From contig NZ_CP094828.1 of assembly GCF_022865125.1 (NCBI RefSeq), positions 434,001-498,000 on the forward strand: DNA of 64,000 bases, read 5' to 3'. The first letter of the stretch is position 1. Each line of letters starts with the position of its first letter. Positions 30,698 to 43,116 of the stretch are shown here, one piece after another. The translations under genes were made by a program, and so were the position numbers. Source of the stretch: Acuticoccus sp. I52.16.1. Lineage in GTDB: Bacteria; Pseudomonadota; Alphaproteobacteria; Rhizobiales; Amorphaceae. The notes under the pieces are model-generated. The model was not told the DNA's origin. It saw only the letters and a program-made list of their open reading frames with translations, and did not search any database.

Positions 30698-30967
30698 CGC
30701 GTCATCCTCTTTCGTCATGCTCGGCCCGACGCCGCGACGGGCGCCGGACGCTCGGCCTCACTATGAGCGCCGAGGCCGCGTCCGGCCACGCGCTCGCCGC
30801 CCGCCGGCGCCCGAATTGTAGGCGGTTCCTGTGAAGGATGTGGGCACCGGCGGCCGCGGCACCGGCGCGCGGGCCGCCCGGTGCGCGACGCTGTCGCGCG
30901 CGGTCGCACAAGCGTGGTAGCGATGCGGTATATTACCGGGTCGCGGTGCCCGGGAACGAGGTTTCGC

Positions 30968-32557
30968 ATGGGCCCAGTCGAGGATCGGCCGGTGTCGTTG
31001 ACCACTGCGCCGGCGCGCGGTGCGCACGCCCGCATCGCCGTCCTGGTCGTTGCCGGGTTCGCGCTCGCCGTCGCCCTCGCGGCGCCCCACTCGCGCACCG
31101 TCCTGGTGGGGAGCGAGCCGCTCCTGCCCGCCTACGCCGCCGCCCTCTTCATCAATGAGCTCATCACCTTCACCCTGCTGGCCGGCATCTTCCTCGTCGA
31201 GCGGTCGCGCGCGGTTCTGGTGCTGGCGTCCGGCTACCTCTTCGGCAGCCTGACGATCGTCCCCTGGGTGCTCTCCTTTCCGGGCGTGTTCCCCCTCATC
31301 GGGCTCGACGCGGGATTGCAGGGGACGGCACTCGTTGCCGCCGTCCGCCGGGTCGGCTTCCCCGCCTTCGTCCTCGCCTACGCGTTGCTGCGCGAGCGAG
31401 CGTCGGCGCCGCCCGGCCGGGGACGCCGGTCGATCGTCGCCGCGATCGCCGTCGTGGCGGCATCCGTCGCGGCGATCACGGCGCTCGTCGTCTGGGCACA
31501 GCACGCGCTGCCGCCGCTGATGCGCGACACGCGCCACGTCACGCTGCTGTGGCAGGTGGTGCCGGCGGCGGCGCTGCTCCTCTATGCGGGCGCGTTCGCC
31601 GCCCTGTGGCGCGGCCGGCCGACGATCCTCGACCTCTGGCTCATGGTGGTGGTCGTCACCCTCGCCTTCGAGGTCGCGCTCCTCTCCTATGTCAGCGGCG
31701 GGGTTCGGCTCAGCGTCGGCTGGTGGGTCGGCCGGCTGTGTGGGCTCGCCTCCGCGAGCACGGTGCTGGTGGTGCTGCTCTCGTCGACCACGGCGCTCTA
31801 CGCCCGCCTCGCCCGGTCCCTCGTCGAGGAGCGGCACGCGCGCGCCAACCGGCTCGTCGCCATGGAAGCGCTGTCGGCGGCGATCGCGCACGAGGTCAAC
31901 CAGCCGCTGGCGAGCATGGTCACCAATGCCAACGCGGGCCTGCGGTGGCTGCACCGCACCCCGCCCGATCATTCCGAGGTCACCGCGGCGCTGGAGCGCA
32001 TCGTCGCCGACGGCCATCGCACCGGCGCGCTGGTGCGCAACATCCGTGCCCTCTTCCGGGACGACACCGGCGACGACGGCCCCGTCGCCCCCAACGCCGT
32101 CATCCGCGACGTGGTGGCGGCGCGCGGCGACGATGCGCACCTGGCGCGTATCGCCATCGCGCTCGAGCTTCGCGAGGTGCCGCCGGTGCGGGCAAACCGC
32201 GTCCACCTGCAACTCGTCGTCGGCAACCTTCTCGCCAACGCGATCGACGCGGCCGCCTCGGGCGGGAGCCGCGGCGGCGGCATCACGATCTCCACCGCGT
32301 TGTCGACCGCCGGAGAGGTCGAGGTCGCCGTCGCCGACACCGGACCGGGGATCGAGCCCGGCATCCGGGCGCGCATGTTCGACCCGTTCGTCACCACCAA
32401 GCCGGACGGAATGGGGATGGGGCTGATGATCTGCCGCTCGATCGTCGAAGCGGCGGGCGGGTGGATCGCTGCCGACGACAATCGCCCACACGGCACCGTC
32501 GTACGCTTTGCGCTGCCGCCGGCGGCCGTGCCCGGCGCGGAAGGGAGGGCGGCATGA
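30968..32557 (+). CDS. membrane-bound sensor histidine kinase (MASE4-like sensor)
   Basis: A 529-residue kinase. The N-terminal ~290 residues have about eight hydrophobic helices resembling a MASE4 sensor (FPGVFPLIGLDAGLQGTALV, GFPAFVLAYALL). The H box AIAHEVNQPLASM has phospho-acceptor His308; the N box is LLANAIDAA, G1 is DTGPGIEPGI, and G2 is GMGMGLMICRSI. ATG 30968 follows GAGG. The stop overlaps the start of the response-regulator gene (ATGA), a strict pair. No PAS domain is visible; the signal is sensed in or near the membrane. Confidence 0.92.
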   Translation: MGPVEDRPVSLTTAPARGAHARIAVLVVAGFALAVALAAPHSRTVLVGSEPLLPAYAAALFINELITFTLLAGIFLVERSRAVLVLASGYLFGSLTIVPWVLSFPGVFPLIGLDAGLQGTALVAAVRRVGFPAFVLAYALLRERASAPPGRGRRSIVAAIAVVAASVAAITALVVWAQHALPPLMRDTRHVTLLWQVVPAAALLLYAGAFAALWRGRPTILDLWLMVVVVTLAFEVALLSYVSGGVRLSVGWWVGRLCGLASASTVLVVLLSSTTALYARLARSLVEERHARANRLVAMEALSAAIAHEVNQPLASMVTNANAGLRWLHRTPPDHSEVTAALERIVADGHRTGALVRNIRALFRDDTGDDGPVAPNAVIRDVVAARGDDAHLARIAIALELREVPPVRANRVHLQLVVGNLLANAIDAAASGGSRGGGITISTALSTAGEVEVAVADTGPGIEPGIRARMFDPFVTTKPDGMGMGLMICRSIVEAAGGWIAADDNRPHGTVVRFALPPAAVPGAEGRAA

Positions 32558-33171
32558 TCGCAGGCGGCACCATGGTCTGCATCGTCGACGACGACCCCTC
32601 GCTGCGCGACGCGCTCGCCAGCCTGCTCCGCTCGGTCGGCCACACCGTCGCCCCGTTCGCCTCGACGGAGGACTTCCTCGCCGCCCCGTGGCGCGACGCG
32701 GCGGGCTGCCTGGTGCTCGACGTGCGCCTCCCCGGCACCAGCGGCCTGGAGCTGCAACGCCGGCTGCGCGAGCGCGGCCCAGACCTGCCGGTCGTGTTCA
32801 TCACCGGCCACGGCGACATCCCGATGTCCGTCGCGGCGATGAAGCAGGGGGCGATCGAGTTCCTGACCAAGCCGTTCCGCGACCAGGACCTGATCGACGC
32901 GGTGAACCGCGGCATCGCGCTCGACCGCGAGCGCAGGGCACGGCTCGCCACGTCCGCGGACCTGCGCGCCCGCTACGACGCGCTGACCCCGCGCGAACGC
33001 GAGGTGATGGGCCTCGTCGCGCAGGGGCGGATGAACAAGGAGATCGCCTTCGCCCTCGGCCTCAGCGAGATCACGGTCAAGGTCCACCGCGGGCACATGA
33101 TGCGCAAGATGAAGGCCCGCTCGCTGCCCGACCTCGTGCGCATGGCCGACCATATCGACCCGCCGGCCTGA
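32554..33171 (+). CDS. FixJ/NarL-type response regulator
   Basis: A 205-residue regulator. Receiver domain with acidic pocket Asp12-14 (VDDDPS), phospho-acceptor Asp56 (LVLDVRLPG), Thr of ITGHGDIP and Lys of FLTKPFR; C-terminal LuxR-type helix-turn-helix (LTPREREVMGLVAQGRMNKE). It overlaps the kinase gene by four bases with its own GGAGG. Targets unknown; the divergent acetamidase/formamidase gene or the importer operon downstream are candidates by position. Confidence 0.94.
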   Translation: MIAGGTMVCIVDDDPSLRDALASLLRSVGHTVAPFASTEDFLAAPWRDAAGCLVLDVRLPGTSGLELQRRLRERGPDLPVVFITGHGDIPMSVAAMKQGAIEFLTKPFRDQDLIDAVNRGIALDRERRARLATSADLRARYDALTPREREVMGLVAQGRMNKEIAFALGLSEITVKVHRGHMMRKMKARSLPDLVRMADHIDPPA

Positions 33172-33228
33172 CCCCGTTCCGCCTGCCCCCGTCCGCACGC
33201 GCTCCGTCGATGATCCTCTCGACGGCGC

Positions 33229-33939
33229 TCAGATACGCAGGTGCTCCAGGACGCGCGCCTCGGTGCCCGGGCCGTTGGCCCCCGCATCGTCGATCCGGCC
33301 GAGCTTCATCACCGCCCAGCGGTCGGCGATGCCGAGGGCGAAGGCGAGGTGCTGCTCGACGATGAGGATCGTCGTCCCCTCCGCCCGCTCGTCCTTCAGC
33401 GCGGCGGCGATGCGCTCGATCACCGTCGGCTGCAGGCCCTCGGAGATCTCGTCGATCAACAGGAGGTCCGGCTCGGTCATCATGGCGCGGGCGATGACGA
33501 GCATCTTCTGCTCGCCGCCCGAGAGCGTGCCCGCCTTCTGCGCCAGCCGGTCGGCGAGGAAGGGGAAGTGGCCGTAGACGCGCTCCAGCCCCGCCGCCAG
33601 CGCGCGGTCGGTCGGCAGCGCGAGGCGCAGGTTGTCGCGGATCGTCAGGTCCTGGAAGAGCGGCTGTTCCTGCGGCGCATAGGCGACGCGCGTATCCGCC
33701 ATCGCCTTCGGGCCGCGCCGCGTGACCTCGGCGCCGTCCAGCAGGATCTGGCCGCGACGGGCGGGTCGCAGGCCGACGATCGTCTTCAGCAGCGTCGTCT
33801 TGCCCATGCCGTTCTTGCCCATCAGGGCGAAGATCTCGCCGGGACGCACGTCGAGCGACAGGTCGTTGATGATGTCGACGTTGCCGTAGCCGCTGGTGAC
33901 CCCCTCCAGCGCCAACTTGGCGGTGATGACCTCAGCCAT
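33229..33939 (-). CDS. ABC transporter ATPase, LivF/UrtE type
   Basis: A 236-residue ATPase. Walker A is GKNGMGKTT, signature LSGGEQKML, Walker B LLLIDEI, and the switch position is Gln/His (VEQHLAFAL). GKNGMGKTT in place of GPNGAGKTT is characteristic of UrtE-like ATPases of urea/amide importers. Its ATG overlaps the end of the fused permease-ATPase by eight bases. Last gene of the nitrilase-importer operon. Confidence 0.93.
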   Translation of the reverse strand: MAEVITAKLALEGVTSGYGNVDIINDLSLDVRPGEIFALMGKNGMGKTTLLKTIVGLRPARRGQILLDGAEVTRRGPKAMADTRVAYAPQEQPLFQDLTIRDNLRLALPTDRALAAGLERVYGHFPFLADRLAQKAGTLSGGEQKMLVIARAMMTEPDLLLIDEISEGLQPTVIERIAAALKDERAEGTTILIVEQHLAFALGIADRWAVMKLGRIDDAGANGPGTEARVLEHLRI

Positions 33940-35713
33940 GGGCGCCTCCGGAATAGATCTGCTTGACGATGTCGGCGTTGACCGCCTCCTCCACGGTGCC
34001 GTCCACTACCAGGCGCCCCTGGTGCAGGACGACGATGCGGCTCGAAATCTCGCGCACGAAGTCGAGGTCGTGCTCGACGAGGATCGCCGCCATGCCGCGC
34101 TCGGCCGTCAGCGTCTTGAGGACGGTGCCGATCGTGGCACGCTCGGTCTTGGTGAGCCCGGCGGTCGGCTCGTCGAGCAGGATGAGCTGCGGCTCGAGCG
34201 AGACCACCATGGCCAGCTCCAGGCTCTGCTTCTGCCCGTGCGACAGGAGCGAGACCGGGGTGGCCAGCATGTGGTCGAGCCCGGTCAGGCGCAGAATGTC
34301 GATCGCCGGTTGCGGCAGCTCCAGCGTGTCGGCCCTCGCAACGAGGCTCGGCGCCCGGTGGGAGACGCGCGCCATCCTGAGGCACGCGGCGACGTCGAGA
34401 TCCTCGAAGACGCTCGCCACCTGGAACTTGCGGCCGATGCCGCGGGCGACGATCTCGTCCGGCAGCATCCCGGCGATGGAAGTGCCGTCGATCCGCACCG
34501 TACCGCCGCTCGCGGCCGCGCCGTCGGTCATGCAGCGCATCAGCGTCGTCTTGCCCGCGCCGTTGGGGCCGACGAGGGAGACCAGTTCGCCCGGCTCCAC
34601 GGTGAGGGTGACGTCGTCCAGCACCTTCTGGCTGCCGTAGGACTTCTCGACCTTGGTCATCTCGAGGAGCGGCGCGGTGCCGGTCCGCGCGAGCCGCGCC
34701 GATTCCACCGCCACGAGGGTCGGCGCAGGCGCGGCCTTGCGCCAGGCCTTCAGCGGCGCGACCACGGCCGCGAGACCGCCGGGCAGGACGATGATGACGA
34801 GCACGAAGAGCGTGCCGATGAAGAGCTGCCACAGGAACGGCAGGTCGCCCGACAGCTCCGCCGACAGGTAGCCGATGCCGACCGCCCCCAGGACCGGGCC
34901 GACGATGGTGCCCCGCCCGCCGAGCGCGGTCCACACCACCAGCTCGGTGCCGAAGACGAACCCGGCGTTCTCCGGCGCTACCACCCCGGAGGCGTTGGCG
35001 TAGAGGAAGCCGGCGAGCCCGGTGGCCCCCGCCAGCACCGCCGTCAGCAGGATCTTGATGCGCTGCGTGCCGATGCCGAGATAGGCGCAGCGCATCTCGT
35101 TGTTGCGGATCGCCGTCAGCAGCCGGCCGGCGTCGGATCGCACGAAGACGAGGGCCGCGACCGTCATGACGACGAGGACCACACCGACGAGACGGAAATA
35201 CCCCTCCAGCGACAGCGCCATCCCCCAATAGCCGACGAGGCCGGAGGACGAACCCGTCCACGTGCCGCCCGAATAGATGAGCTGGGTGATCACGATCGGC
35301 ACCACCAGCGAGATGATGGTGGCGTAGAAGGCCGAGGAGCCGGGGTAGAAGGTGAGCCAGCCGACCGCCGCGCCGACCAGCGTCGGGACGACGATGGCCG
35401 CCAGCAGCCCCAGCGCGAGATAGGGCGCGGAATCGCCCAGGTGGGTGAGGATCATTGCCGTGGCGTAGGCGCCGACGCCGAAGAACGCCGCCTGACCGAA
35501 CGTCAGGATGCCGGTAAAGCCCCACAGGAGGTCCACCGTGATCGCCAGCATGGCGAAGATCATCGCCCGCGTCAGCACGTTGAGGGCGAAGCGGTCGAGC
35601 ATGGAGGGGCCGAGCAGCATCACCGCGACGGCGGCGAGCGCGAGGACGATCAGCAGCGCGCCGCGGCCGCGTCGCCGGGCGGGCGCGGCGCCGGAGATGG
35701 CGACATCAGGCAC
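33932..35713 (-). CDS. fused ABC permease-ATPase (LivM-LivG / UrtC-UrtD type)
   Basis: One 593-residue frame: permease half (residues ~1-320; LWGFTGILTFGQAAFFGVGAY and GGRGTIVGPVLGAVG motifs) followed by an ATPase half from ~residue 349. ATPase motifs: GPNGAGKTT Walker A, LLSHGQKQSLELA signature, LILLDEP Walker B, LVEHDLDFV switch His. The signature LSHGQKQ resembles UrtD. This is the second permease-ATPase fusion in the window, independent in sequence from the one at 4574-6337. It overlaps the upstream permease gene by eight bases. Confidence 0.93.
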   Translation of the reverse strand: MPDVAISGAAPARRRGRGALLIVLALAAVAVMLLGPSMLDRFALNVLTRAMIFAMLAITVDLLWGFTGILTFGQAAFFGVGAYATAMILTHLGDSAPYLALGLLAAIVVPTLVGAAVGWLTFYPGSSAFYATIISLVVPIVITQLIYSGGTWTGSSSGLVGYWGMALSLEGYFRLVGVVLVVMTVAALVFVRSDAGRLLTAIRNNEMRCAYLGIGTQRIKILLTAVLAGATGLAGFLYANASGVVAPENAGFVFGTELVVWTALGGRGTIVGPVLGAVGIGYLSAELSGDLPFLWQLFIGTLFVLVIIVLPGGLAAVVAPLKAWRKAAPAPTLVAVESARLARTGTAPLLEMTKVEKSYGSQKVLDDVTLTVEPGELVSLVGPNGAGKTTLMRCMTDGAAASGGTVRIDGTSIAGMLPDEIVARGIGRKFQVASVFEDLDVAACLRMARVSHRAPSLVARADTLELPQPAIDILRLTGLDHMLATPVSLLSHGQKQSLELAMVVSLEPQLILLDEPTAGLTKTERATIGTVLKTLTAERGMAAILVEHDLDFVREISSRIVVLHQGRLVVDGTVEEAVNADIVKQIYSGGAHG

Positions 35714-36539
35714 GGGAGAACCCTTTCGGCGAGAGGCGCAGGATGAGCGCGGCGAGGACGGCGATGGTGACGCCGCCGAGGATGGGGCTGACGAAGGTGG
35801 AGACGATCACCTGCATGCCGCCCAGGACGAGGCACGCCAGCGCCAGCGCCCCGAACGACTGCCCCGCCACCATCACCAGCATGAACGAGCCGACGAGCCA
35901 GGCGACGCCCATGTTGGGGTCGACACTGGTGAGCGGCGTCAGCAGCACCCCCGCGAGGCCGGCGAGCCCGGTGCCGATCATGAATGTCACGGTGCGGATC
36001 TTGGCGGTGTCGAGCCCCAGGATGCGCGCCAGCGTCTCGTTCATGATGACCGCGCGGGCCGACAGGCCGAGGCGCGTGCCCTCCATGAGGTAGGCGAAGC
36101 CGAGCCCCAGAAGGATCGCCGCCCCCAGCGCGAAGAGGCGATAGGCCGAATAGGAGGTGCCGAAGACGTCCATCGTCCCCGGAATGAGGCTCTCGGTGAA
36201 CTGCACGTCGCGGCCGAAGACGAGCGTGATGAGCTGGCCGATGACGATGCCGAGCCCCCAGGTGGCGAGGATCGCATCGAGCGGGCGCGCGTAGAGCGGG
36301 CGGACGATGAAGCGCTCGGTGAGGATGCCCAGGACGCCGCCGACGACGAACGCGATCGGGAGCGCCGCCCACGGGCTGAGGCCCATCTCGGCCGTCGCCA
36401 CCGCGCAGTAGCCTCCGACGGTGAGCCAGGCACCGTGCGCGAAGTTGATGATCTTGAGGACGCCGAAGATCGTCAGAAGGCCGGTGGCGACGATGAACAG
36501 GACGGCCGAGCTGGTCACCATGTCGAGGAAGAGAGTCAT
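35706..36539 (-). CDS. ABC transporter permease, LivH/UrtB type
   Basis: A 277-residue membrane permease. Motifs: LLTIFGVLKIINFAHGAWLTVGGY in the N-terminal helices and the cytoplasmic LGLSARAVIMNETLARILGL. ATG 36539 is preferred because GTGGAG lies six bases upstream; a GTG at 36551 would overlap that site. It pairs with the permease half of the following fusion protein to form the translocation channel. Confidence 0.93.
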   Translation of the reverse strand: MTLFLDMVTSSAVLFIVATGLLTIFGVLKIINFAHGAWLTVGGYCAVATAEMGLSPWAALPIAFVVGGVLGILTERFIVRPLYARPLDAILATWGLGIVIGQLITLVFGRDVQFTESLIPGTMDVFGTSYSAYRLFALGAAILLGLGFAYLMEGTRLGLSARAVIMNETLARILGLDTAKIRTVTFMIGTGLAGLAGVLLTPLTSVDPNMGVAWLVGSFMLVMVAGQSFGALALACLVLGGMQVIVSTFVSPILGGVTIAVLAALILRLSPKGFSRA

Positions 36540-36616
36540 GGCAGTCTCCACGCGGCGGGAAAGCGGGGTGGCGGGCGCAAACGGCGGGACCGGAGCCCCG
36601 CCGCGACGGGTTCAGG

Positions 36617-37759
36617 TCAAAGGTTCGGGCACTGCTCGCCGGGGTCGACGTTCTCGAACGAGGAGACGACCTTCACCGAGCCGTCGGCCTGCACCTCGCC
36701 GAGGTACATCGTCAGCGGCGCGTGGTGCTGCTTGGACATCGCGATCGTCCCGCGCGGGCCGGTGAACGAGACCTCGCCGAGCGCGTCCAGCACGGCGCGC
36801 GGATCGGTCGACCCGGCCTTCTCGACGGCTTCCTTATAGAGGTAGACGCCTTCGTACTGCGGGACCGAGAGGTCGTTGGGGGTGCGCAGGTCCTCGCCGA
36901 ACTTCTCTTCCATGGCGGCGAGGAAGCTCTTGTTCTCGTCCGAGGCGATGCCGGTGATGTAGGACGCGGAGATGAGGATGCCCTCCGCGTCTCCGCCCAT
37001 CGATTTCGCCGTCCCCTCGTCGACCGCGAGGTTGGCGTAGGGGACCGTCACGCCCGCGCCGCGCAGCTGCTTGGTAAGCGTCACGTTGGGCGCGCCGCCG
37101 GCGGTGGAGGTGATCAGCGCGTCGGCGCCGGAGTTCTTGAGCTGCGAGATGATGGCGGTCCAGTCCGTCCCGTCCATCGGCAGGTACTCCTCGCCGACGA
37201 CCTCGCCGCCGTTCTCGCCGATATAGGCCTCCGCGAAATCGAGCATGCCGCGGCCGAAGGCGTAGTCGCTGCCGATGAGGAAGAACTTCGTCGCCCCGTC
37301 CGCCATCAGGTAGTCGACCACCGGGGGCACCTGCTGCTCGGGCACCCAGGCGTTGACGTAGAGGAACGGGTTGCAGGAGCGCCCCTCGTAGAACGAGGTG
37401 TAGATGTAGGGGATGCGCCCGCGCTGCACGATCGGCAGGCCCGCGTTGCGTGCCGCGCTCGTCTCCATCGAGATGAGGACGTCCACCTCGTCGCGGAAGA
37501 CCAGCGCGTCGAACGCCTTCTGCGCCCCCACCGCGCCCGACCCGTCGTCCGCGACGACGAGTTCCAGCGGCCGGCCGAGCACGCCGCCGCCGGCGTTGAT
37601 CTCCTCGACCGCCAGCTCGGCGGCCTGCACCACGGACGGGGCGACGACGCTGTTGGCGCCGGACAGGCCCACCGGCACGCCGATCTTGATCGGCTCCTCG
37701 GCGTGCGCCGCGCCGGCGAGGAGAGTGGCCGCCAGGACGGCGGCGATCTTGGTGTTCAT
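36617..37759 (-). CDS. ABC substrate-binding protein, urea/short-chain amide type
   Basis: A 380-residue periplasmic binding protein with signal peptide (residues 1-20, AHA-EE). Fold type I features: IKIGVPVGLSGANSVV, ELAVEEINAGGGVLGRPLEL, AFGRGMLDFAEAYIGENGG and TSTAGGAPNVTLTKQ. It resembles UrtA/AmiC-group proteins. Located between the nitrilase-family amidase gene and the permeases, so it most likely captures the amide, carbamoyl or related compound that the amidase cleaves. Confidence 0.92.
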   Translation of the reverse strand: MNTKIAAVLAATLLAGAAHAEEPIKIGVPVGLSGANSVVAPSVVQAAELAVEEINAGGGVLGRPLELVVADDGSGAVGAQKAFDALVFRDEVDVLISMETSAARNAGLPIVQRGRIPYIYTSFYEGRSCNPFLYVNAWVPEQQVPPVVDYLMADGATKFFLIGSDYAFGRGMLDFAEAYIGENGGEVVGEEYLPMDGTDWTAIISQLKNSGADALITSTAGGAPNVTLTKQLRGAGVTVPYANLAVDEGTAKSMGGDAEGILISASYITGIASDENKSFLAAMEEKFGEDLRTPNDLSVPQYEGVYLYKEAVEKAGSTDPRAVLDALGEVSFTGPRGTIAMSKQHHAPLTMYLGEVQADGSVKVVSSFENVDPGEQCPNL

Positions 37760-37847
37760 ATTGTCAGCTCCTGCTTCAGGACGAGCGAAGGTGAGGCCAC
37801 GAAGGCCCCGATCGACGGGGGTCGCGCGAGGGCGCCGAGGCGCCGGG

Positions 37848-38702
37848 TCAGCGGTAGACGTCGCGACGTCTGTCCGCGTGGACGTGGTTGTGGGCGTTGA
37901 TCTGCCGGACCGTGGCGATGCTGGTCAGATCCACCTCGGCGAGAAGCGTCTCCGCCTCGCTGCGGTGAGCCGGGCCGGCGAGCGGCCAGCCGTCGGGACC
38001 GAGGATGAGGCTCTGGCCGATGAACGGCTGCCCCCGCTCCACTCCCACCCTGTCCGCGCAGGCGATGTAGATGCCGTTGGAGTGGGCCGCCGCCTTGTGC
38101 AGCGTGTTGGCCATCGCCTCCACCGCGGGGTCCTGGCTCGGCATCGGCACCCAGTTGGTCGGAATGCAGACGATCTGGGCCCCCGCATCGGCCAGCGTGC
38201 GGAAGGTCTCCGGGAACCAGCCGTCGTAGCAGACGGCGATGCCGATCTTGCCGAGCGGCGTGTCGAACACCGGGAGGCCCACGTCGCCGGGGGCAAAGAA
38301 CAGCGTCTCCTTGTCCCACAAATGGAGCTTGCGGTAGCGGCCGATGAAGCCGTCCGGCCCGGTCAGCAGCGCGCCGTTGTAGACCCGCCCCTCCGCCGCC
38401 TCGGCGATGCCCGAGACGATGTGGATGCCGAGCCGCCGCGCCAGCGCCACCAGGAAGGCCGCGGCCTTGCCCTCCGGCACCGGGCCGGCGAGCCGGGCGA
38501 GTTCCTCGTCACTCTCGAAGACGTAGCCGCTGGGGGCGAGCTCCGGCAGCACGACGAGGCTCGCCCCTCGCGCGGCCGCCGCCTCGACGTTCGTTTCGAT
38601 GGTCGCCAGGTTGGCGTCCACCTCGCCGATTTTCGGCTCGAACTGGATGCAGGCGACCGTGTAGCGGCCGGGCCGGGGCCCGGAACCGGGGTCGGAGGGC
38701 AT
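37848..38702 (-). CDS. nitrilase-superfamily carbon-nitrogen hydrolase (amidase)
   Basis: A 284-residue cytoplasmic hydrolase with the catalytic triad Glu54 (LPELAPSG), Lys125 (YRKLHLWD) and Cys158 (AVCYDGWFPE). It should hydrolyse an amide or N-carbamoyl compound to an acid plus ammonia; the CYDGWFPE sequence suggests an amidase rather than a true nitrilase. ATG 38702 has GGAG eight bases upstream. First gene after the terminator-bearing leader, and thus the direct target of AmiR antitermination. It takes the position that AmiE has in the Pseudomonas ami operon. Substrate not determined. Confidence 0.92.
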   Translation of the reverse strand: MPSDPGSGPRPGRYTVACIQFEPKIGEVDANLATIETNVEAAAARGASLVVLPELAPSGYVFESDEELARLAGPVPEGKAAAFLVALARRLGIHIVSGIAEAAEGRVYNGALLTGPDGFIGRYRKLHLWDKETLFFAPGDVGLPVFDTPLGKIGIAVCYDGWFPETFRTLADAGAQIVCIPTNWVPMPSQDPAVEAMANTLHKAAAHSNGIYIACADRVGVERGQPFIGQSLILGPDGWPLAGPAHRSEAETLLAEVDLTSIATVRQINAHNHVHADRRRDVYR

Positions 38703-38720
38703 GATGGGTCTCCAAAACGC

Positions 38721-38760
38721 AAAAAGCCCCTGACGCGGCGTGAACCGCAGGTCAGGGGCT
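38721..38760 (-). terminator. leader terminator (attenuator) before the amidase operon
   Basis: On the minus strand AGCCCCTGAC pairs perfectly with GTCAGGGGCT (38751-38760 with 38725-38734). The 16-base interior can add a GCGG/CCGC stem, and a T run follows (TTTT, then GCGTTTT). It lies between amiR and the amidase start, 19 bases before the start codon. By default it would stop transcription ahead of the amidase. A small alternative hairpin GGCT-TCGT-AGCC (38757-38768) shares the first bases of its 5' arm and could compete with it. Confidence 0.88.
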
Positions 38761-38778
38761 ACGAAGCCTTGATGTGAA

Positions 38779-38810
38779 GACGGCAACCTTGCCGCCGAGC
38801 ATCGCTGCTC
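38779..38810 (-). promoter_or_regulatory. tandem ANTAR-target hairpins in the leader RNA
   Basis: Read on the minus strand: GAGC-AGCGAT-GCTC (38797-38810), directly followed by GGCGGC-AAGGTT-GCCGTC (38779-38796, one G-U pair). Both loops are six bases with A at position 1 and G at position 4, the known signature of the two-hairpin RNA bound by ANTAR antiterminators. They sit downstream of the amiR gene and upstream of the terminator at 38721-38760, the canonical order. The signature is known from literature; binding here is inferred. Confidence 0.82.
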
Positions 38811-38874
38811 TTGTGGCGCGAAAGTTGGCACGGCTCGAATTGAGGCTCAAGCCGAACTTTCGACCAAACGCTGC

Positions 38875-39528
38875 CTATTCTTTCGGCGCGCCCGCTTTGA
38901 CCTCCGCACCGCGGCGCAAGCCCAGCCGCGCCATCGTCTCGTACGCGGTGACGATCTCTTCGGCGATGGCGCTGAGGGGGATGCGCTCGGCCGTCGCCTG
39001 GTCGCGCAGGAGTCGGTAGGCGGCGTCCTCGGCCATCCCCTGCTCGTCCATCAGGACGCGGATCGCCCGGTCGACCATGCGCCGGCCCTTCAGCGTGTCC
39101 TCCAGCTTGCGGATCTTGCCGTTGAGCCGCCCTTCGGTGCGGTGGCGGTACCGCGCCAGGGTGAACTGCGTCAGGATCCCCAGCGGGCGCAGCGGCTTGC
39201 TCATCACGCCGTGGGCGTTGAGGTCGTAGATCGACTTCAGCGTCGTCGGGCTCTCGTACGTGACGATGGCGATGACGGCGACGTCGTGCCCCTCGAGGAG
39301 CTGCACCATGTCGCCCACCGCCACCTCGTCGACACCGACGAGGATGGTGTCGATCCCGTCCGGCAGCACCAGCGGCGGCGGCCAGGCATGGCCGACCGCG
39401 CAGCCGAGGCGCTTCAGGTGCGCGCCGAGCAGCTGGCCGTCCTCGTCTTGCGGGTGGATCAGCAGCGCGCGGGCGCGGCGCAATTCGTCGAGGATGCGCC
39501 GCGCGCCCCGCCCTTGGCTATCGTTCAT
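38875..39528 (-). CDS. amiR: ANTAR-domain RNA-binding antiterminator, AmiR-like
   Basis: A 217-residue protein. The N-terminal half is a pseudo-receiver fold without a convincing phospho-acceptor pattern (ALLIHPQDEDGQLLGAHLK, ILVGVDEVAVGDM). A coiled-coil helix (RLNGKIRKLEDTLKGRRMVDRA) leads into the ANTAR domain (residues ~150-200: QGMAEDAAYRLLRDQA), which binds RNA as a dimer. ATG 39528 follows GAGGGGAG. By analogy with AmiR of Pseudomonas, it is held inactive by AmiC until an amide binds AmiC, then it prevents termination in the leader of the amidase operon. Confidence 0.92.
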   Translation of the reverse strand: MNDSQGRGARRILDELRRARALLIHPQDEDGQLLGAHLKRLGCAVGHAWPPPLVLPDGIDTILVGVDEVAVGDMVQLLEGHDVAVIAIVTYESPTTLKSIYDLNAHGVMSKPLRPLGILTQFTLARYRHRTEGRLNGKIRKLEDTLKGRRMVDRAIRVLMDEQGMAEDAAYRLLRDQATAERIPLSAIAEEIVTAYETMARLGLRRGAEVKAGAPKE

Positions 39529-39622
39529 GCCGCTCCCCTCGCCGGCTGCCCCGTGTATCGCAGAGGCATCCGCCGTGCCGCGGCGGCACGGGTCGGCGAG
39601 CGGGTCGTCGGGTCCATCGCGC

Positions 39623-40768
39623 TCACGCCCAGGACTCCAGCGCGCGCTCTTCGATGCGGGTCGCGGCAAGGTAGGGGTCCGGGCGGACGGCGACGCGGCT
39701 CTCCCAGACGATATCGAACAAGCCCTGCGCGTTGGCCACACCGATGCGCGGGGTGAGCCACAGGTGGCGCGTGTCGGCGTCGACGCGCACGCGGCCCTCG
39801 GGCGTGTCGAACTCGTCGCCCAGGGGGTCGAGCGCGATGCGGCGCGGGTCGGCGGCACCGACGCGGGCGAGCGCGCGGGCGAACATGTGGACCTGCATGT
39901 AGGCCGCCTCGGACCAGATGCTGGTGGTCGCCTCGGCTCCGAAGCGTGCCTTGAACGCTTCGACGAAGGCGCGGTTGGCGGCGTTGTCGACCGTCTGCAC
40001 GTAGGTCGCGGCGAGGATGTGGCCGGTACAGGCCGCCGCGCCGATGGTGGCGATCTCCGTCTCGGCCATGGTGAGGCTCGCGATCGGCTGGCGCGCGCGG
40101 TCGAACCCGGCCGCGTCGTAGAGGCGATAGAACGCCTGCGCGGAGGTGCCGATGATTGTGGAGAAGACCGCATCCGGCGCCGCGGTGCGGATCTTCGGGA
40201 TGATGTCCTCCAGCGCGTCCGCCCCCGCCTCCAACGGCACGTAGGTCTCGCCGACGACCTCGCCGCCGCGCGCCTCGATCAGCTCCTGCATGATGCGGTT
40301 GGACTCGCGCGGGAAGATGTAGTCCGAGCCGACGAAGTAGATGCGTCCGCCGTGATGGCGGATCAGGTAATCGGCCAGCGGCAGGCACGTCTGGTTCACG
40401 GTGGCGCCGCAGTAGAGGACGTTCTCGCAATACTCGAACCCCTCGTACATCGAGGGGTAGAACAACAGCCCGTTGTGCCGCTCGACGATCGGCAGCACCG
40501 TCTTGCGGCTCGCCGACATGGAGCAGCCGAAGATGATGTCGAGATCGTCTTCGGCGAGCATGCGGCGGGCGAGTGCCAGATAGTCGGCGTTGCGGGCACC
40601 GGGATCGTACACGGTCGGCACGATGGGGCGGCCGAGAATGCCGCCGGCGGCGTTGATCTCGGCGATGGCGAGCTCGGTGCCGCGCAGGTGCTCGGTTTCG
40701 GTGACGACGGTGGTGCCGCTCCTAGAGAACAAGACGCCGACGCGCCAACCATCCGAATCAGGGCTCAC
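39623..40768 (-). CDS. amiC: amide sensor / negative regulator AmiC-like
   Basis: A 381-residue type I binding protein with no signal peptide, so cytoplasmic, as expected for AmiC and unlike transport binding proteins. AmiC-like segments: GVLFSRSGTTVVTETEHLRG, VERHNGLLFYPSMYEGFEY, FVGSDYIFPRESNRIM and FSTIIGTSAQAFYRLY. GTG start at 40768 with GGGAGGGG. It precedes amiR by 94 bases and should sequester it in the absence of amide. It is distinct from the exported binding protein at 36617-37759. Confidence 0.92.
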   Translation of the reverse strand: MSPDSDGWRVGVLFSRSGTTVVTETEHLRGTELAIAEINAAGGILGRPIVPTVYDPGARNADYLALARRMLAEDDLDIIFGCSMSASRKTVLPIVERHNGLLFYPSMYEGFEYCENVLYCGATVNQTCLPLADYLIRHHGGRIYFVGSDYIFPRESNRIMQELIEARGGEVVGETYVPLEAGADALEDIIPKIRTAAPDAVFSTIIGTSAQAFYRLYDAAGFDRARQPIASLTMAETEIATIGAAACTGHILAATYVQTVDNAANRAFVEAFKARFGAEATTSIWSEAAYMQVHMFARALARVGAADPRRIALDPLGDEFDTPEGRVRVDADTRHLWLTPRIGVANAQGLFDIVWESRVAVRPDPYLAATRIEERALESWA

Positions 40769-41362
40769 GTCCCCTCCCTACCGTCACTCCACGAAGCGCG
40801 CGATGCTATGGGCCCACCTGCGCCGCGACAAGGCACGGCCCCCGCCGGGCCGACCTGCCGCGCCGCTCGCAGCGGCCGTCGCGCGCGGTTCGCGCCGTCG
40901 GGGGCAGATGGCACGCCATCCGTGGATCCGGGCATCGAATTGAATAGCTATCGTTCGGTGCAAAATTTCGACCATACGGCGAAGGGCGCGCCGCCGGGCG
41001 GGCCCGTCGCCGATCCGGACGCGCGCTGAACGCCGATCCGGTGAGCGCCCGCTTCGTGCAGACGATCCAGAGCGGCATGTCGATCCTGGCGCGCGATGGG
41101 GCGAACCGCGAGGATCTCGTTGCGGTCGCCGAAGTGGCGATGGCCGCCTGGGACGCGCACTTGTCCGCCGCCGGCGCACCGGGCCGGCCGCCGACGCGAC
41201 CCGGATAAGGCCGGCGCCGGCCCCTTCTGCCCGCTCGGGTGTCGAGGCTACCGTCGACGATCGGCTCTACGCGTCCGGATTTGTCGTCCACGCCGATCAA
41301 CGTCAGCGAGACTGGGACGGGTCGGCCGGGAAGAGGCTCTGCGGCCGCGGGGGGCTGCGCCG
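40769..41362. other. intergenic region upstream of amiC
   Basis: About 590 bases with no certain gene. A less GC-rich patch at ~40935-40980 should contain the amiC promoter (minus strand) or the end of a decayed gene. One short plus-strand frame at 41041-41208 is listed separately. Bases 41210-41362 show nothing recognisable. Confidence 0.45.
41041..41208 (+). CDS. possible small protein or gene remnant
   Basis: A 55-codon frame from a GTG. Its first 40 residues have a protein-like, amphipathic composition (FVQTIQSGMSILARDGAN, then EDLVAVAEVAMAAWDAHL) and look like a helical segment of a larger family, but I could not place it. No clear ribosome binding site (CCGATCCG). The frame is open upstream without a start, so it may be the tail of a decayed gene. 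Low confidence. Confidence 0.25.
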   Translation: MSARFVQTIQSGMSILARDGANREDLVAVAEVAMAAWDAHLSAAGAPGRPPTRPG

Positions 41363-42253
41363 TCAGCGGTGGCGCAGGTTCTCGACCAGCAGGCGGAAGG
41401 CGAGGCCGTGCTGCCGGCGGCTCGGATAATAGATGTGATAGCCCTCCCAGGTGGGCCACCAGTCCGCCAGCACCGGCAGGAGCCGACCGGCGGTCAGGTG
41501 CGCCTCCACCTGATCGAGCGGCACGAAGACGAGGCCGATGCCATCGAGCGCGGACGCCACGCGCAGGGCGAGACTGTTGAACACCGCCGGCCCCTCGATC
41601 CGCACGCGGCGCGTCTCGCCGTCCTTCTCCAGCGGCCAGGTGAAAATCTCGCCGCGCGTCGGCAGACGCGAGCGCACGCAGCGGTGCACGGTCAGCGCGT
41701 CCGGGTCGGTGGGCATCGGGTAGCGTTCGAAGTAGGCCGGCGCGCCGACCACCGCCATCGTCACGTCGGCGCTGATGCGCACCGCGATCATGTCCCGCGC
41801 AACCTGATTGCCGAGGCGCACCCCCGCGTCGAACCGGTCGGCGACGATGTCGATCATGCCGCCGTCGACGATGATCTCAACCTCCACGTCCGGATATTCC
41901 AGCGCGAACGCGGCGAGGCGGGGTTGCAGCACCCGCACGGCCGGATGCTCGCCGGCGCTGATGCGGATGGTACCGCGCGGGGTGTCGCGGATCTCGTTCA
42001 GCTCGTCGAGAGCGTCCTGCATCTCCCCGAACTGCGGGCCGAGGCGGGCGAGCAGGCGCGCCCCCGCCTCCGTCGGCGCGACGCTGCGGGTGGAGCGGGT
42101 CAGGAGACGCACGCCGAGCGCCTCCTCCAGGTTGCGGATCGTCTGGCTCAGCGCCGACTGCGACATTCCGAGTTCCGCCGCCGCGTTGGTGAAGCTGCGG
42201 TGCCGCGCGACGACGGTGAAGGCGAACAGGTCGTTGAAGACGCGGCGGTCCAT
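41363..42253 (-). CDS. LysR family transcriptional regulator
   Basis: A 296-residue regulator: N-terminal helix-turn-helix (FTNAAAELGMSQSALSQTIRNLEEALGVRLL) and a substrate-binding domain ending YHIYYPSRRQHGLAFRLLVENLR. Same subgroup as the LysR at 24691, with which it shares the C-terminal YYP-RRQ motif. Members commonly sit divergent from an aldo/keto reductase; here a collapsed one lies 133 bases away at 42387-42566. The regulator may thus have lost its main local target. Confidence 0.93.
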   Translation of the reverse strand: MDRRVFNDLFAFTVVARHRSFTNAAAELGMSQSALSQTIRNLEEALGVRLLTRSTRSVAPTEAGARLLARLGPQFGEMQDALDELNEIRDTPRGTIRISAGEHPAVRVLQPRLAAFALEYPDVEVEIIVDGGMIDIVADRFDAGVRLGNQVARDMIAVRISADVTMAVVGAPAYFERYPMPTDPDALTVHRCVRSRLPTRGEIFTWPLEKDGETRRVRIEGPAVFNSLALRVASALDGIGLVFVPLDQVEAHLTAGRLLPVLADWWPTWEGYHIYYPSRRQHGLAFRLLVENLRHR

Positions 42254-42386
42254 TATGCCTGCATTTCGATAAAGCCAATCTCATTTTGAAGGGTAATCGC
42301 TGAGTGGCGCGGCGTCCATCTGAGGTCGGCGCCCCGGTGTCGTGGGGCGCTGCGCGCAGGCGCAGTCCGTTCGAAAGGAAGTATCC

Positions 42387-42566
42387 GTGCAGTCACGTAC
42401 GCTCGGCACCCTCGACGTTTCGGCCCTCGGGCTCGGTTGCATGTCGATGAGTGCGCTTTACGGACCGCCGGGCGATCACGCCGAGATGATCGACGCGACC
42501 GCCGCGCGGATCCCGCTGGTGGGCGAGCGCCTGCCCGAGGCCGTCTTGGAGATGACCGGGCTCTGA
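42387..42566 (+). pseudogene. collapsed aldo/keto reductase remnant, internal in-frame deletion
   Basis: A 59-codon frame with a GTG start and AAAGGAAG at good spacing. The first ~31 residues (SRTLGTLDVSALGLGCMSMS, then ALYGPPGDHAEMID) are the N-terminus of an aldo/keto reductase. The last ~25 (AARIPLVGERLPEAVLEMTGL) look like its C-terminus, so ~270 residues including the Tyr-Lys-Asp-His active site have been removed in frame. Divergent from the LysR gene. Not an active reductase; may still be translated. Confidence 0.72.
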
Positions 42567-42654
42567 CCCGCGCCGCCGGCGGCGGCCACCCCGCCCCCGG
42601 CATCGACCCACCACCCCCGCGCGCCCGCCGCGCCCGACGATGGATCGACCCCCG

Positions 42655-43116
42655 ATGACCCCACCTCGCCCCCTGCCGCTCGCCGCCCTGCTGGTGGGCC
42701 TGACCCTCGCCACCGCCGCGCGTGCCGAGCCCAACCGCGTCGAGTTCCCCGACGATCTCGACGCATTGGAGCACTACACCACCGTCACGCGCCGCGACGT
42801 CACCGAGTTCATGTACACCTCCCGCGCCGCGCTCGACGCGATCCGGGCCGGCGGCGAGATCCCGGACGGGACGCAGATCATCCTGCAGGACTGGCGCGAG
42901 GGCGAGGTCTACCGTCTCTTCGTGATGCAGAAGGGGGACGGCTGGGGCGCGGACTATGCCGCCGCCACCCGCACCGACGACTGGCAATTCCAGTGGTTCT
43001 GGCCGGACGGGTCGGTCAACATGGACGAAAACACCGCCCGCTGCCGCGCCTGCCATGCCGCGCGCGAGGGCCGCGACTTCATGTTCACCTACAACGATGC
43101 CCGGCGGTATGAGTGA
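42655..43116 (+). CDS. cytochrome P460 family protein
   Basis: A 153-residue exported c-type haem protein. Signal peptide residues 1-24 (ARA-EP). The haem motif is CRACH (Cys130, Cys133, His134), preceded by the family pattern FQWFWPDGSVNMDENTARC. Cytochromes P460 oxidise hydroxylamine or bind nitric oxide; the cross-linking Lys of the founding member cannot be placed safely here. ATG 42655 was chosen over 42640 since it gives a cleaner signal peptide. Its stop region overlaps the start of the next membrane-protein gene by eight bases, so the two are co-translated. Confidence 0.87.
   Translation: MTPPRPLPLAALLVGLTLATAARAEPNRVEFPDDLDALEHYTTVTRRDVTEFMYTSRAALDAIRAGGEIPDGTQIILQDWREGEVYRLFVMQKGDGWGADYAAATRTDDWQFQWFWPDGSVNMDENTARCRACHAAREGRDFMFTYNDARRYE

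What the first reader, a model, noticed from the sequence alone, without database searches (positions are those of the whole stretch)
38721..40768. AmiC/AmiR with a complete ANTAR antitermination leader controlling an amidase-importer operon
Seen: a signal-less AmiC-like protein, an ANTAR protein, then a leader with two back-to-back hexaloop hairpins. These are GAGC-AGCGAT-GCTC and GGCGGC-AAGGTT-GCCGTC, both with A1 and G4 in the loop. Behind them is a terminator (AGCCCCTGAC/GTCAGGGGCT plus T run) just before the amidase start. Known: ANTAR proteins bind such twin hairpins and prevent termination. Inferred: amide binding to AmiC frees AmiR, which opens the whole amidase-ABC operon (33.2-38.7 kb). 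In Pseudomonas the ami genes lie downstream of amiE; here the sensor pair is placed in front of a nitrilase-type enzyme and a high-affinity importer, and no P1-P2 linker exists. A small GGCT-TCGT-AGCC hairpin that shares the terminator arm may be the switch element.
Basis: partly seen in the sequence, partly recalled or inferred. Interest (0 to 1): 0.82.

Follow-up and report, generated by a model that had tools for sequence, protein, structure and literature searches.

The report
Amide-sensing RNA switch before amidase operon
A bacterium related to Acuticoccus seems to switch on an amide-degrading and importing operon through an RNA-binding protein that blocks a transcription stop signal; this is a known kind of switch, but its RNA loops and the protein residue thought to gauge them differ together from the textbook version, which offers a natural test of how such proteins recognise RNA.

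Summary
The sequence elements are real: an AmiC-AmiR pair, a leader with hairpins and an intrinsic terminator, then a nitrilase-type enzyme and a urea/amide-type ABC importer. Across 25 aligned orthologous leaders the terminator-exclusive ANTAR hairpin (P2) is the small GGC-UUCGUA-GCC hairpin (38757-38768), which shares AGCC with the terminator's 5' arm and keeps loop G4 in 23 of 23 clear six-base loops (two Paracoccus leaders found later have C). The GGCGGC hairpin is P1, 10 nt upstream, so a normal linker exists. The GAGC hairpin is an extra one near the predicted 5' end; its G4 is kept in 3 of 20. Twin A1/G4 loops alone are not rarer than chance; P1 + P2 + terminator is. This arrangement was found in 21 of 397 sampled genomes of the order and is annotated in Rhizobium, so the operon is not new. 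The new part: nearly all loops can be closed to tetraloops by a 1-6 base pair, and AmiR has Thr where EutV needs Met172, proposed in print to keep tetraloops out. The Thr group may be one lineage, so the link is suggestive only. Verdict: new variant of a known kind.

The parts
39623..40768 (-). amiC: cytoplasmic amide/urea-type sensor, negative regulator of AmiR (by analogy)
   Evidence: Peripla_BP_5, 427 bits; AmiC 1qnl/1pea best match
38875..39528 (-). amiR: pseudo-receiver + ANTAR antiterminator; Thr at the position of EutV Met172
38845..38850 (-). candidate -35 (TTGAGC)
   Evidence: a TTGnnn hexamer 16-18 nt before a -10-like hexamer was picked in 25 of 25 leaders as best score within a set distance range, no random control
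38822..38827 (-). candidate -10 (CAACTT), ends 61 nt before the terminator stem
   Evidence: 57-61 nt in 25 of 25, stem starts as called (off by some bases in L006 and L034)
38797..38810 (-). H1: extra hairpin GAGC-AGCGAU-GCUC near the predicted 5' end of the leader RNA
   Evidence: stem paired in 20 of 20 core leaders, loop G4 in 3 of 20
38779..38796 (-). H2 = P1: GGCGGC-AAGGUU-GCCGUC
   Evidence: compensatory changes; loop position 4 G 13 / A 12 of 25
38769..38778 (-). P1-P2 linker UUCACAUCAA; ACAU in most leaders
38757..38768 (-). H3 = P2: GGC-UUCGUA-GCC, shares AGCC (38757-38760) with the terminator's 5' arm
38725..38760 (-). intrinsic terminator stem-loop (10-bp outer stem)
38721..38725 (-). 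U-tract of the terminator
37848..38702 (-). nitrilase-superfamily hydrolase (amidase-type; substrate unknown), first gene of the presumed operon
36617..37759 (-). substrate-binding protein, UrtA-like
   Evidence: below the curated NCBIfam cut-off
35706..36551 (-). permease, UrtB-like
   Evidence: below the curated NCBIfam cut-off
33932..35713 (-). permease-ATPase fusion (UrtC-UrtD-like)
   Evidence: below the curated NCBIfam cut-off
33229..33939 (-). ATPase, UrtE-like
   Evidence: below the curated NCBIfam cut-off

Best explanation
It is an AmiC/AmiR-controlled transcription-antitermination leader. A promoter between amiR and the leader (inferred) makes a short RNA whose hairpins H1 and H2 form at once and whose default 3' end is an intrinsic terminator just before the nitrilase start codon. 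Without inducer AmiC holds AmiR (inferred from the Pseudomonas system). With an amide- or urea-like ligand AmiR is freed, binds hairpin H2 (P1) and then H3 (P2), and holds H3 closed. H3 uses the AGCC that the terminator needs next to its U-tract, so RNA polymerase reads on into the nitrilase and ABC importer genes. H1 is an added hairpin, probably an extra AmiR loading site or a 5'-end stabiliser. Shown here: protein identities, conservation and covariation of H1, H2 and the terminator, conservation of H3, overlap of H3 with the terminator base, constant gene order. Inferred: ligand, binding, readthrough, promoter, operon extent, role of H1.
For: AmiC and AmiR are the best structural matches. 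In 25 of 25 aligned leaders a terminator with U-run follows (the L006 stem was mis-set there and corrected by hand), with H3 at its 5' arm. Pairing: 98.8% of cells over H1+H2+H3 in 20 leaders, slid versions at most 57.7%; 98.2% over H2+H3 in 25 leaders, slid at most 67.2%, four pairs with changes on both sides, 0 of 500 shuffles as many; 97.4% with H1+H2+terminator, slid at most 52.4%. H3 loop position 4 is G in 23 of 23 clear six-base loops. Covariance model R1 built from 20 leaders gave 17 matches with E up to 3.1e-4 in 297 genomes, all 17 next to amiR places; 5 were not in the training set; one lies in this genome. R1 also matched further leaders not used in it: L077, L090, L151 (E about 5e-9), L152, L153 (E about 1e-4). 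The terminated fold is favoured over the H3-forced fold by 3.3-9.8 kcal/mol in 8 of 8 leaders tried out of 25.
Against: No expression, binding or induction data. Shuffle controls are not uniformly in favour: the number of pairs with double changes was reached in 106 of 500 shuffles and 32 of 500, and the number of pair types in 500, 178 and 492 of 500. H3 itself barely varies (one double change, in L008/L043), so its pairing is shown more by conservation than by covariation. H3 lacks the A1 of the published consensus. AmiR lacks Met172 and Asn173, both in the RNA contact set of EutV (alignment; PMC8934654). The -10 is weak. L040 and L042 have larger H3 loops; L006, L152 and L153 have no clear H2 hexaloop, and L152/L153 have C at H3 position 4. 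AmiC has Ser where P. aeruginosa AmiC has Tyr83, so the ligand may differ (that this residue lines the amide site is recalled).
Confidence: 0.85

Rival explanations
1. One reading: H1 and H2 are P1 and P2, back to back without a linker, and the terminator is opened through them.
For: In the window both have A1 and G4; tandem hexaloops look like the published motif.
Against: G4 kept in 3 of 20 H1 and 13 of 25 H2 loops; neither overlaps the terminator (38751-38760); by eye H1 is not a hexaloop hairpin in L005-L008 and L043, where H3 and the terminator stay and H2 stays in all but L006.
Confidence: 0.08
2. The leader is an N-terminal extension of the nitrilase gene (GTG start at 38831) and the hairpins are by-products of coding sequence.
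For: The frame is open through the leader in the window and in 11 others of 24 leaders with a start found.
Against: In 12 of 24, among them the near relatives L002, L003 and L076, a stop lies inside the leader in that frame (the starts of L006, L008 and L043 are doubtful). Compensatory pair changes. A GGAG-like motif stands 3-14 nt before a start codon in 19 of 20 core leaders (the pattern required it, L042 gave none).
Confidence: 0.02
3. H3/terminator is a plain attenuator or the terminator of the amiR transcript, and control of the operon is at the promoter (for example through the inverted repeat at 38819-38862) rather than by AmiR binding RNA.
For: An 8-bp perfect inverted repeat flanks the candidate promoter.
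Against: By eye the repeat is not in the leaders of L002 or L003, whereas the H3-type hairpin with terminator is in 25 of 25 and an H2 hexaloop in 24 of 25 leaders next to amiR.
Confidence: 0.05

Closest known systems
Pseudomonas aeruginosa AmiC/AmiR and the amiE leader
   Same: AmiC-type sensor, pseudo-receiver ANTAR protein AmiR, leader terminator before an amide hydrolase gene (PMC3369931 passages).
   Different: Published text gives A1/G4 loops for the amiE leader (passages; the leader itself was not seen); here P2 is U1/G4/A6. P. aeruginosa AmiR has Met at the EutV-172 position, the window's has Thr.
EutV and the eut leaders of Enterococcus faecalis
   Same: Two small hairpins, the second inside the terminator's 5' arm, linker of 5-12 nt (PMC3369931, PMC8934654, passages and parts read).
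   Different: EutV is a phosphorylated response regulator; Met172 is essential there (M172A abolishes binding, PMC8934654) and is Thr here; here three hairpins, whose loops can be closed by a 1-6 pair.
AmiC-AmiR (Met172 type) leaders before UrtA-type importers in Hyphomicrobiales
   Same: P1 + GGC-nnnnnn-GCC + terminator downstream of amiR.
   Different: P1 loops with A1 are complementary at 1-6 in 2 of 10 by the scan, against 25 of 25 for Thr types; no nitrilase homologue at the window's level of similarity next to them.

Membership tests
AmiC (amide-binding negative regulator) | Periplasmic-binding fold closest to AmiC, no signal peptide | tested here: met
   1qnl_A/1pea best; ORF begins VSPDSDGWRVGVLFSRSG with no hydrophobic leader (by eye)
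AmiC (amide-binding negative regulator) | Binds amide and releases AmiR | not testable with these tools
   needs binding assays
AmiR | AmiR_N pseudo-receiver plus ANTAR domain | tested here: met
   AmiR_N 104 bits, ANTAR 53 bits; 1qo0_D over residues 9-193
ANTAR target RNA (dual hexaloop) | Two hairpins of at least 3 bp with 6-nt loops and a short linker | tested here: met
   H2 and H3 in the window; a third (H1) upstream. Over the family L006, L152, L153 lack a clear H2 hexaloop and L040, L042 have larger H3 loops
ANTAR target RNA (dual hexaloop) | A at loop position 1 of both hairpins | tested here: not met
   P1 A in 22 of 25; P2 U in 23 of 24 six-base loops as aligned, the other being L042 in a shifted register
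ANTAR target RNA (dual hexaloop) | G at loop position 4 of both hairpins | tested here: inconclusive
   Met in the window (both). Over the family P2 23 of 23 clear six-base loops of 25 leaders (C in L152, L153), P1 13 of 25, the rest A
ANTAR target RNA (dual hexaloop) | P2 overlaps an intrinsic terminator | tested here: met
   38757-38760 shared; terminator in 25 of 25 leaders
ANTAR target RNA (dual hexaloop) | ANTAR protein binds it and raises readthrough | not testable with these tools
   needs binding and transcription assays
ANTAR RNA-contact set of EutV | E160, Y164, R168, M172, N173, R175, R177 | tested here: not met
   alignment: E160, Y164, R168 and R175 kept; M172 is Thr, N173 Ala, R177 Pro
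Rfam families | A match above gathering score in the leader | tested here: not met
   window 32000-43000, E up to 5, two matches, none in the leader; 15 loci, 0 matches at gathering score

The most novel reading that the evidence does not exclude
This AmiR lineage has changed its RNA code from open hexaloops to tetraloops closed by a 1-6 base pair, and the change is coupled to loss of the methionine plug (EutV Met172 to Thr). It would be a natural confirmation of the published proposal that Met172 measures loop size. The three-hairpin leader would then be a relay of three loading sites for an AmiR dimer that reads one loop at a time.
Probability: 0.3. Interest if true: 0.66.

Novelty: new variant of a known kind. 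Interest (0 to 1): 0.47.

Why it matters
If the coupled change is real, ANTAR proteins do not all read A1/G4 hexaloops, and searches built on that rule would underrate a branch of nitrogen-scavenging operons in Rhizobium relatives. It also turns an untested structural proposal (Met172 as a loop-size gauge) into a simple swap experiment with natural protein-RNA pairs. The operon control as such is ordinary for this family.

Tried and rejected
Rfam search for an ANTAR model: no match in the leader. The conserved ACAU of the linker pairing with AUGU of the H3 loop: possible in some leaders (L076, L004) but not in L001, L003, L032 or L041, so dropped (by eye). A Pseudomonas-type amiE leader was sought through the aliphatic-amidase family (24 of 299 genomes over the cut-off); by eye on the 330 nt upstream only L093 of 24 showed a clear leader terminator, so there was no comparison set, and the P. 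aeruginosa leader is cited from passages only. The second AmiC/AmiR pair of this genome (L052) shows no such leader within about 330 nt downstream of amiR. A regulon: R1 found one site in this genome (strict filters, 12 candidates scored per genome, so weak sites may be missed). The 8 weak R1 matches (E 0.0175-0.1) were not examined and are treated as chance; whether other genomes of that sample hold a nitrilase-type leader without an R1 match was not checked. Scan: it mispicked P2 in L009 and L057 and read L040 in another register; of 20 Met-type P2 loops left after dropping L009 and L057, 8 were closed at 1-6 (10 of 22 with both read by eye); three Met-type rows with G at P1 position 1 (L070-L072) are outside the count of 10; near-copies (L054-L056, L070-L072, L068/L069, L012/L013) are in these counts. 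One search carried a mistyped second pair; only its first pair (H2 1-6) is used, and the A1 counts were redone. Rows dropped before counts: L031 (same as L002), L075, L082, L083 (re-fetched copies), L123-L147 (R1 places; the 17 strong ones repeat loci already held, the 8 weak ones were not looked at); L025-L030 (other ANTAR types) left out of tree and tally; L044 left out of the tree because its amiR match is split. L152 and L153, found after the alignment, also stand before nitrilase homologues and are not among the 25. Of 257 plasmid records with a match 19 stretches were fetched.
Full report
What is there. On the minus strand the window carries amiC (39623-40768), amiR (38875-39528), a leader, a nitrilase-superfamily gene (37848-38702) and UrtA/B/CD/E-like importer genes (33229-37759) (the NCBIfam matches are below their curated cut-offs). 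AmiC and AmiR have P. aeruginosa AmiC and AmiR as best PDB matches. The nearest named relative found is Acuticoccus mangrovi (91% identity in AmiR, the one locus that call returned).

Leader anatomy. RNA 5' to 3': candidate promoter (-35 38850-38845, -10 38827-38822); H1 38810-38797; H2 38796-38779; 10-nt linker; H3 38768-38757; terminator 38760-38725; U-tract 38725-38721; GGAG and ATG at 38702. H3 and the terminator share AGCC (38757-38760). If H3 is held, the rest of the terminator stem ends three to four bases short of the U-tract (L001 fold).

More than chance. Tandem A1/G4 hexaloops alone occur three times on the two strands of the window, against a mean of 0.95 per simulated 64-kb strand. 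The composite of P1, embedded P2 and terminator occurs once, against 0 in 20 simulated strands. The 85-nt leader folds better than 200 of 200 shuffles; the part before the terminator's 3' arm does so less clearly, 7 of 200 shuffles being as good.

Orthologous leaders. AmiR homologues were sought by protein in 101 relatives (42 with a match), 397 genomes of the order (37 at E up to 1e-20), 385 of the class (6), 398 of the phylum (13) and in plasmids (257 records; 60 rows listed each, 19 stretches fetched). These sets overlap. Twenty-five leaders between amiR and a nitrilase homologue were aligned: 22 genome loci from 11 families by handle and 3 plasmid loci, Rhizobium leguminosarum, Sinorhizobium and Agrobacterium vitis. 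Twenty-one of the 397 genomes hold such a locus. A terminator follows in 25 of 25. By eye, H1 as a 4-bp hexaloop hairpin is in the 20 leaders of the core clade and not in L005-L008 or L043.

Pair counts. H1+H2+H3 in 20 leaders: 98.8% of cells paired, slid versions at most 57.7%; three pairs with changes on both sides, which 106 of 500 shuffles also reach. H2+H3 in 25 leaders: 98.2%, slid at most 67.2%; four such pairs, 0 of 500 shuffles. H1+H2+terminator in 20: 97.4%, slid at most 52.4%; five such pairs, 32 of 500. Most of the covariation lies in H1, H2 and the terminator; H3 has one double change (L008/L043).

Loop positions. H1: A1 19 of 20; position 4 A 10, U 7, G 3. H2: A1 22 of 25; position 4 G 13, A 12. 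H3: U1, G4 and A6 in 23 clear six-base loops; L040 has an 8-base loop; L042 is counted in a shifted register (so 24 of 24 for G4 as aligned) and by eye has a 7-base loop. L152 and L153 (Paracoccus), found later, have GGC-UGGCAA-GCC, that is C at position 4. The published ANTAR rule is A1 and G4 in both loops (PMC3369931, section 10 part 1 and passages). In the EutV-RNA structure G4 is the only base-specific contact and A1 makes none (PMC8934654, parts 1, 2 and 4 and passages). H3 is thus the G4-bearing, terminator-exclusive P2, and H2 is P1.

Independent check. Model R1 (20 leaders) gave matches in 25 of 297 genomes of the order. Seventeen have E up to 3.1e-4 and all lie beside amiR places; 12 were training leaders and 5 were not. 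Eight have E 0.0175-0.1 and were not examined. This genome has one match. On 26 chosen loci outside the training set R1 also matched L077, L090, L151 (E about 5e-9), L006 (1.1e-5), L152 and L153 (about 1e-4), and more weakly several Met172-type leaders.

The coupled difference. Positions 1 and 6 are complementary in H1 in 20 of 20 (A-U 19, U-A 1), in H2 in 25 of 25 as aligned (A-U 22, U-A 2, C-G 1; the C-G is L006, whose H2 is not a clear hexaloop) and in H3 in 24 of 25 as aligned (U-A); L042 by eye is also U-A closed. The double changes come from L040, from the sisters L035/L036 and from L006, so covariation of this pair rests on about three events; a slide by one column gave 73% paired and as many double changes (covariation 0.130 against 0.193). 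RNAfold closes H1 and H2 this way in the window. The AmiR of all 25 has Thr where EutV has Met172 and P. aeruginosa AmiR has Met. Over 92 AmiR-type rows the tally is Met 57, Thr 32, Gln 2, Leu 1. By the scan, P1 loops are closed at 1-6 in 25 of 25 Thr-type rows with a P1, against 2 of 10 Met-type rows with A1; P2 loops in 25 of 26 Thr-type rows (the other is L040) against 8 of 20 Met-type rows. Walshe et al. report that M172A abolishes binding and suggest that Met172 may keep smaller loops such as tetraloops out (PMC8934654, passages). The Thr group needs one change on the tree (support 75/87; 76% of bootstrap trees), so this may be one evolutionary event and the coupling is a hypothesis.

Mechanism. 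As given under best explanation. The terminated fold beats the H3-forced fold by 3.3-9.8 kcal/mol in 8 of 8 leaders tried out of 25, so a protein is needed to keep H3. The distance from the picked -10 to the terminator stem is 57-61 nt in 25 of 25 (search range 50-85, no random control, stem starts off by some bases in L006 and L034). This suggests a leader promoter separate from amiC-amiR, places H1 at the 5' end of the RNA and would remove the self-amplification of an amiE-amiC-amiR operon (inference).

Novelty. The gene order is annotated in Rhizobium and Agrobacterium plasmids. Paper searches (1 of 1 listed, 30 of 1,542, 25 of 127, 6 of 6, 13 of 13) listed no paper whose title or abstract start treats this nitrilase-type leader. 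PMC6759348, PMC5424462, PMC7496416, PMC8164766 and PMC7948467 were seen in passages only. No Rfam family matches. I rate it a new variant of a known kind. Checking changed one fact that bears on odds, the two Paracoccus leaders with C4; confidence in the best explanation was set from 0.86 to 0.85 and the plain-attenuator rival from 0.04 to 0.05.

Noticed in passing
window 38819-38826 and 38855-38862: Perfect 8-bp inverted repeat CGAAAGTT/AACTTTCG flanking the candidate leader promoter; by eye not in the leaders of L002 or L003. Possible operator of an unknown regulator.
   Followed up: partly
window genome, C1 about 4.527-4.540 Mb (L052, L112): A second AmiC/AmiR pair and, about 11.5 kb away, an aliphatic amidase (AmiE family, over the curated cut-off); no antitermination leader seen in about 330 nt after that amiR.
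   Followed up: partly
window 33932-35713: Permease and ATPase of the importer fused in one 593-aa protein (UrtC-UrtD-like); a gene of similar length sits at the same place in Rhizobium leguminosarum.
   Followed up: partly
window 30881-33171 (+): Genes that look like a histidine kinase and a response regulator (judged from the translation only) converging on the importer genes.
   Followed up: no
L006 1294-1406, L152, L153: Thr-type AmiR leaders that keep the terminator-embedded hairpin but have no recognisable P1 hexaloop; L152/L153 (Paracoccus) have C at P2 position 4.
   Followed up: partly
L010, L048, L054-L056, L058: Met172-type leaders whose P2 loop starts with G (GAUGUA), so A1 is also missing outside the nitrilase group.
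   Followed up: partly
L009 3288-3394 (-), L046 3288-3396 (-): Weak R1 matches (E 0.022 and 2.3e-4) upstream of amiC rather than after amiR; possibly a second leader in front of the regulator genes.
   Followed up: no
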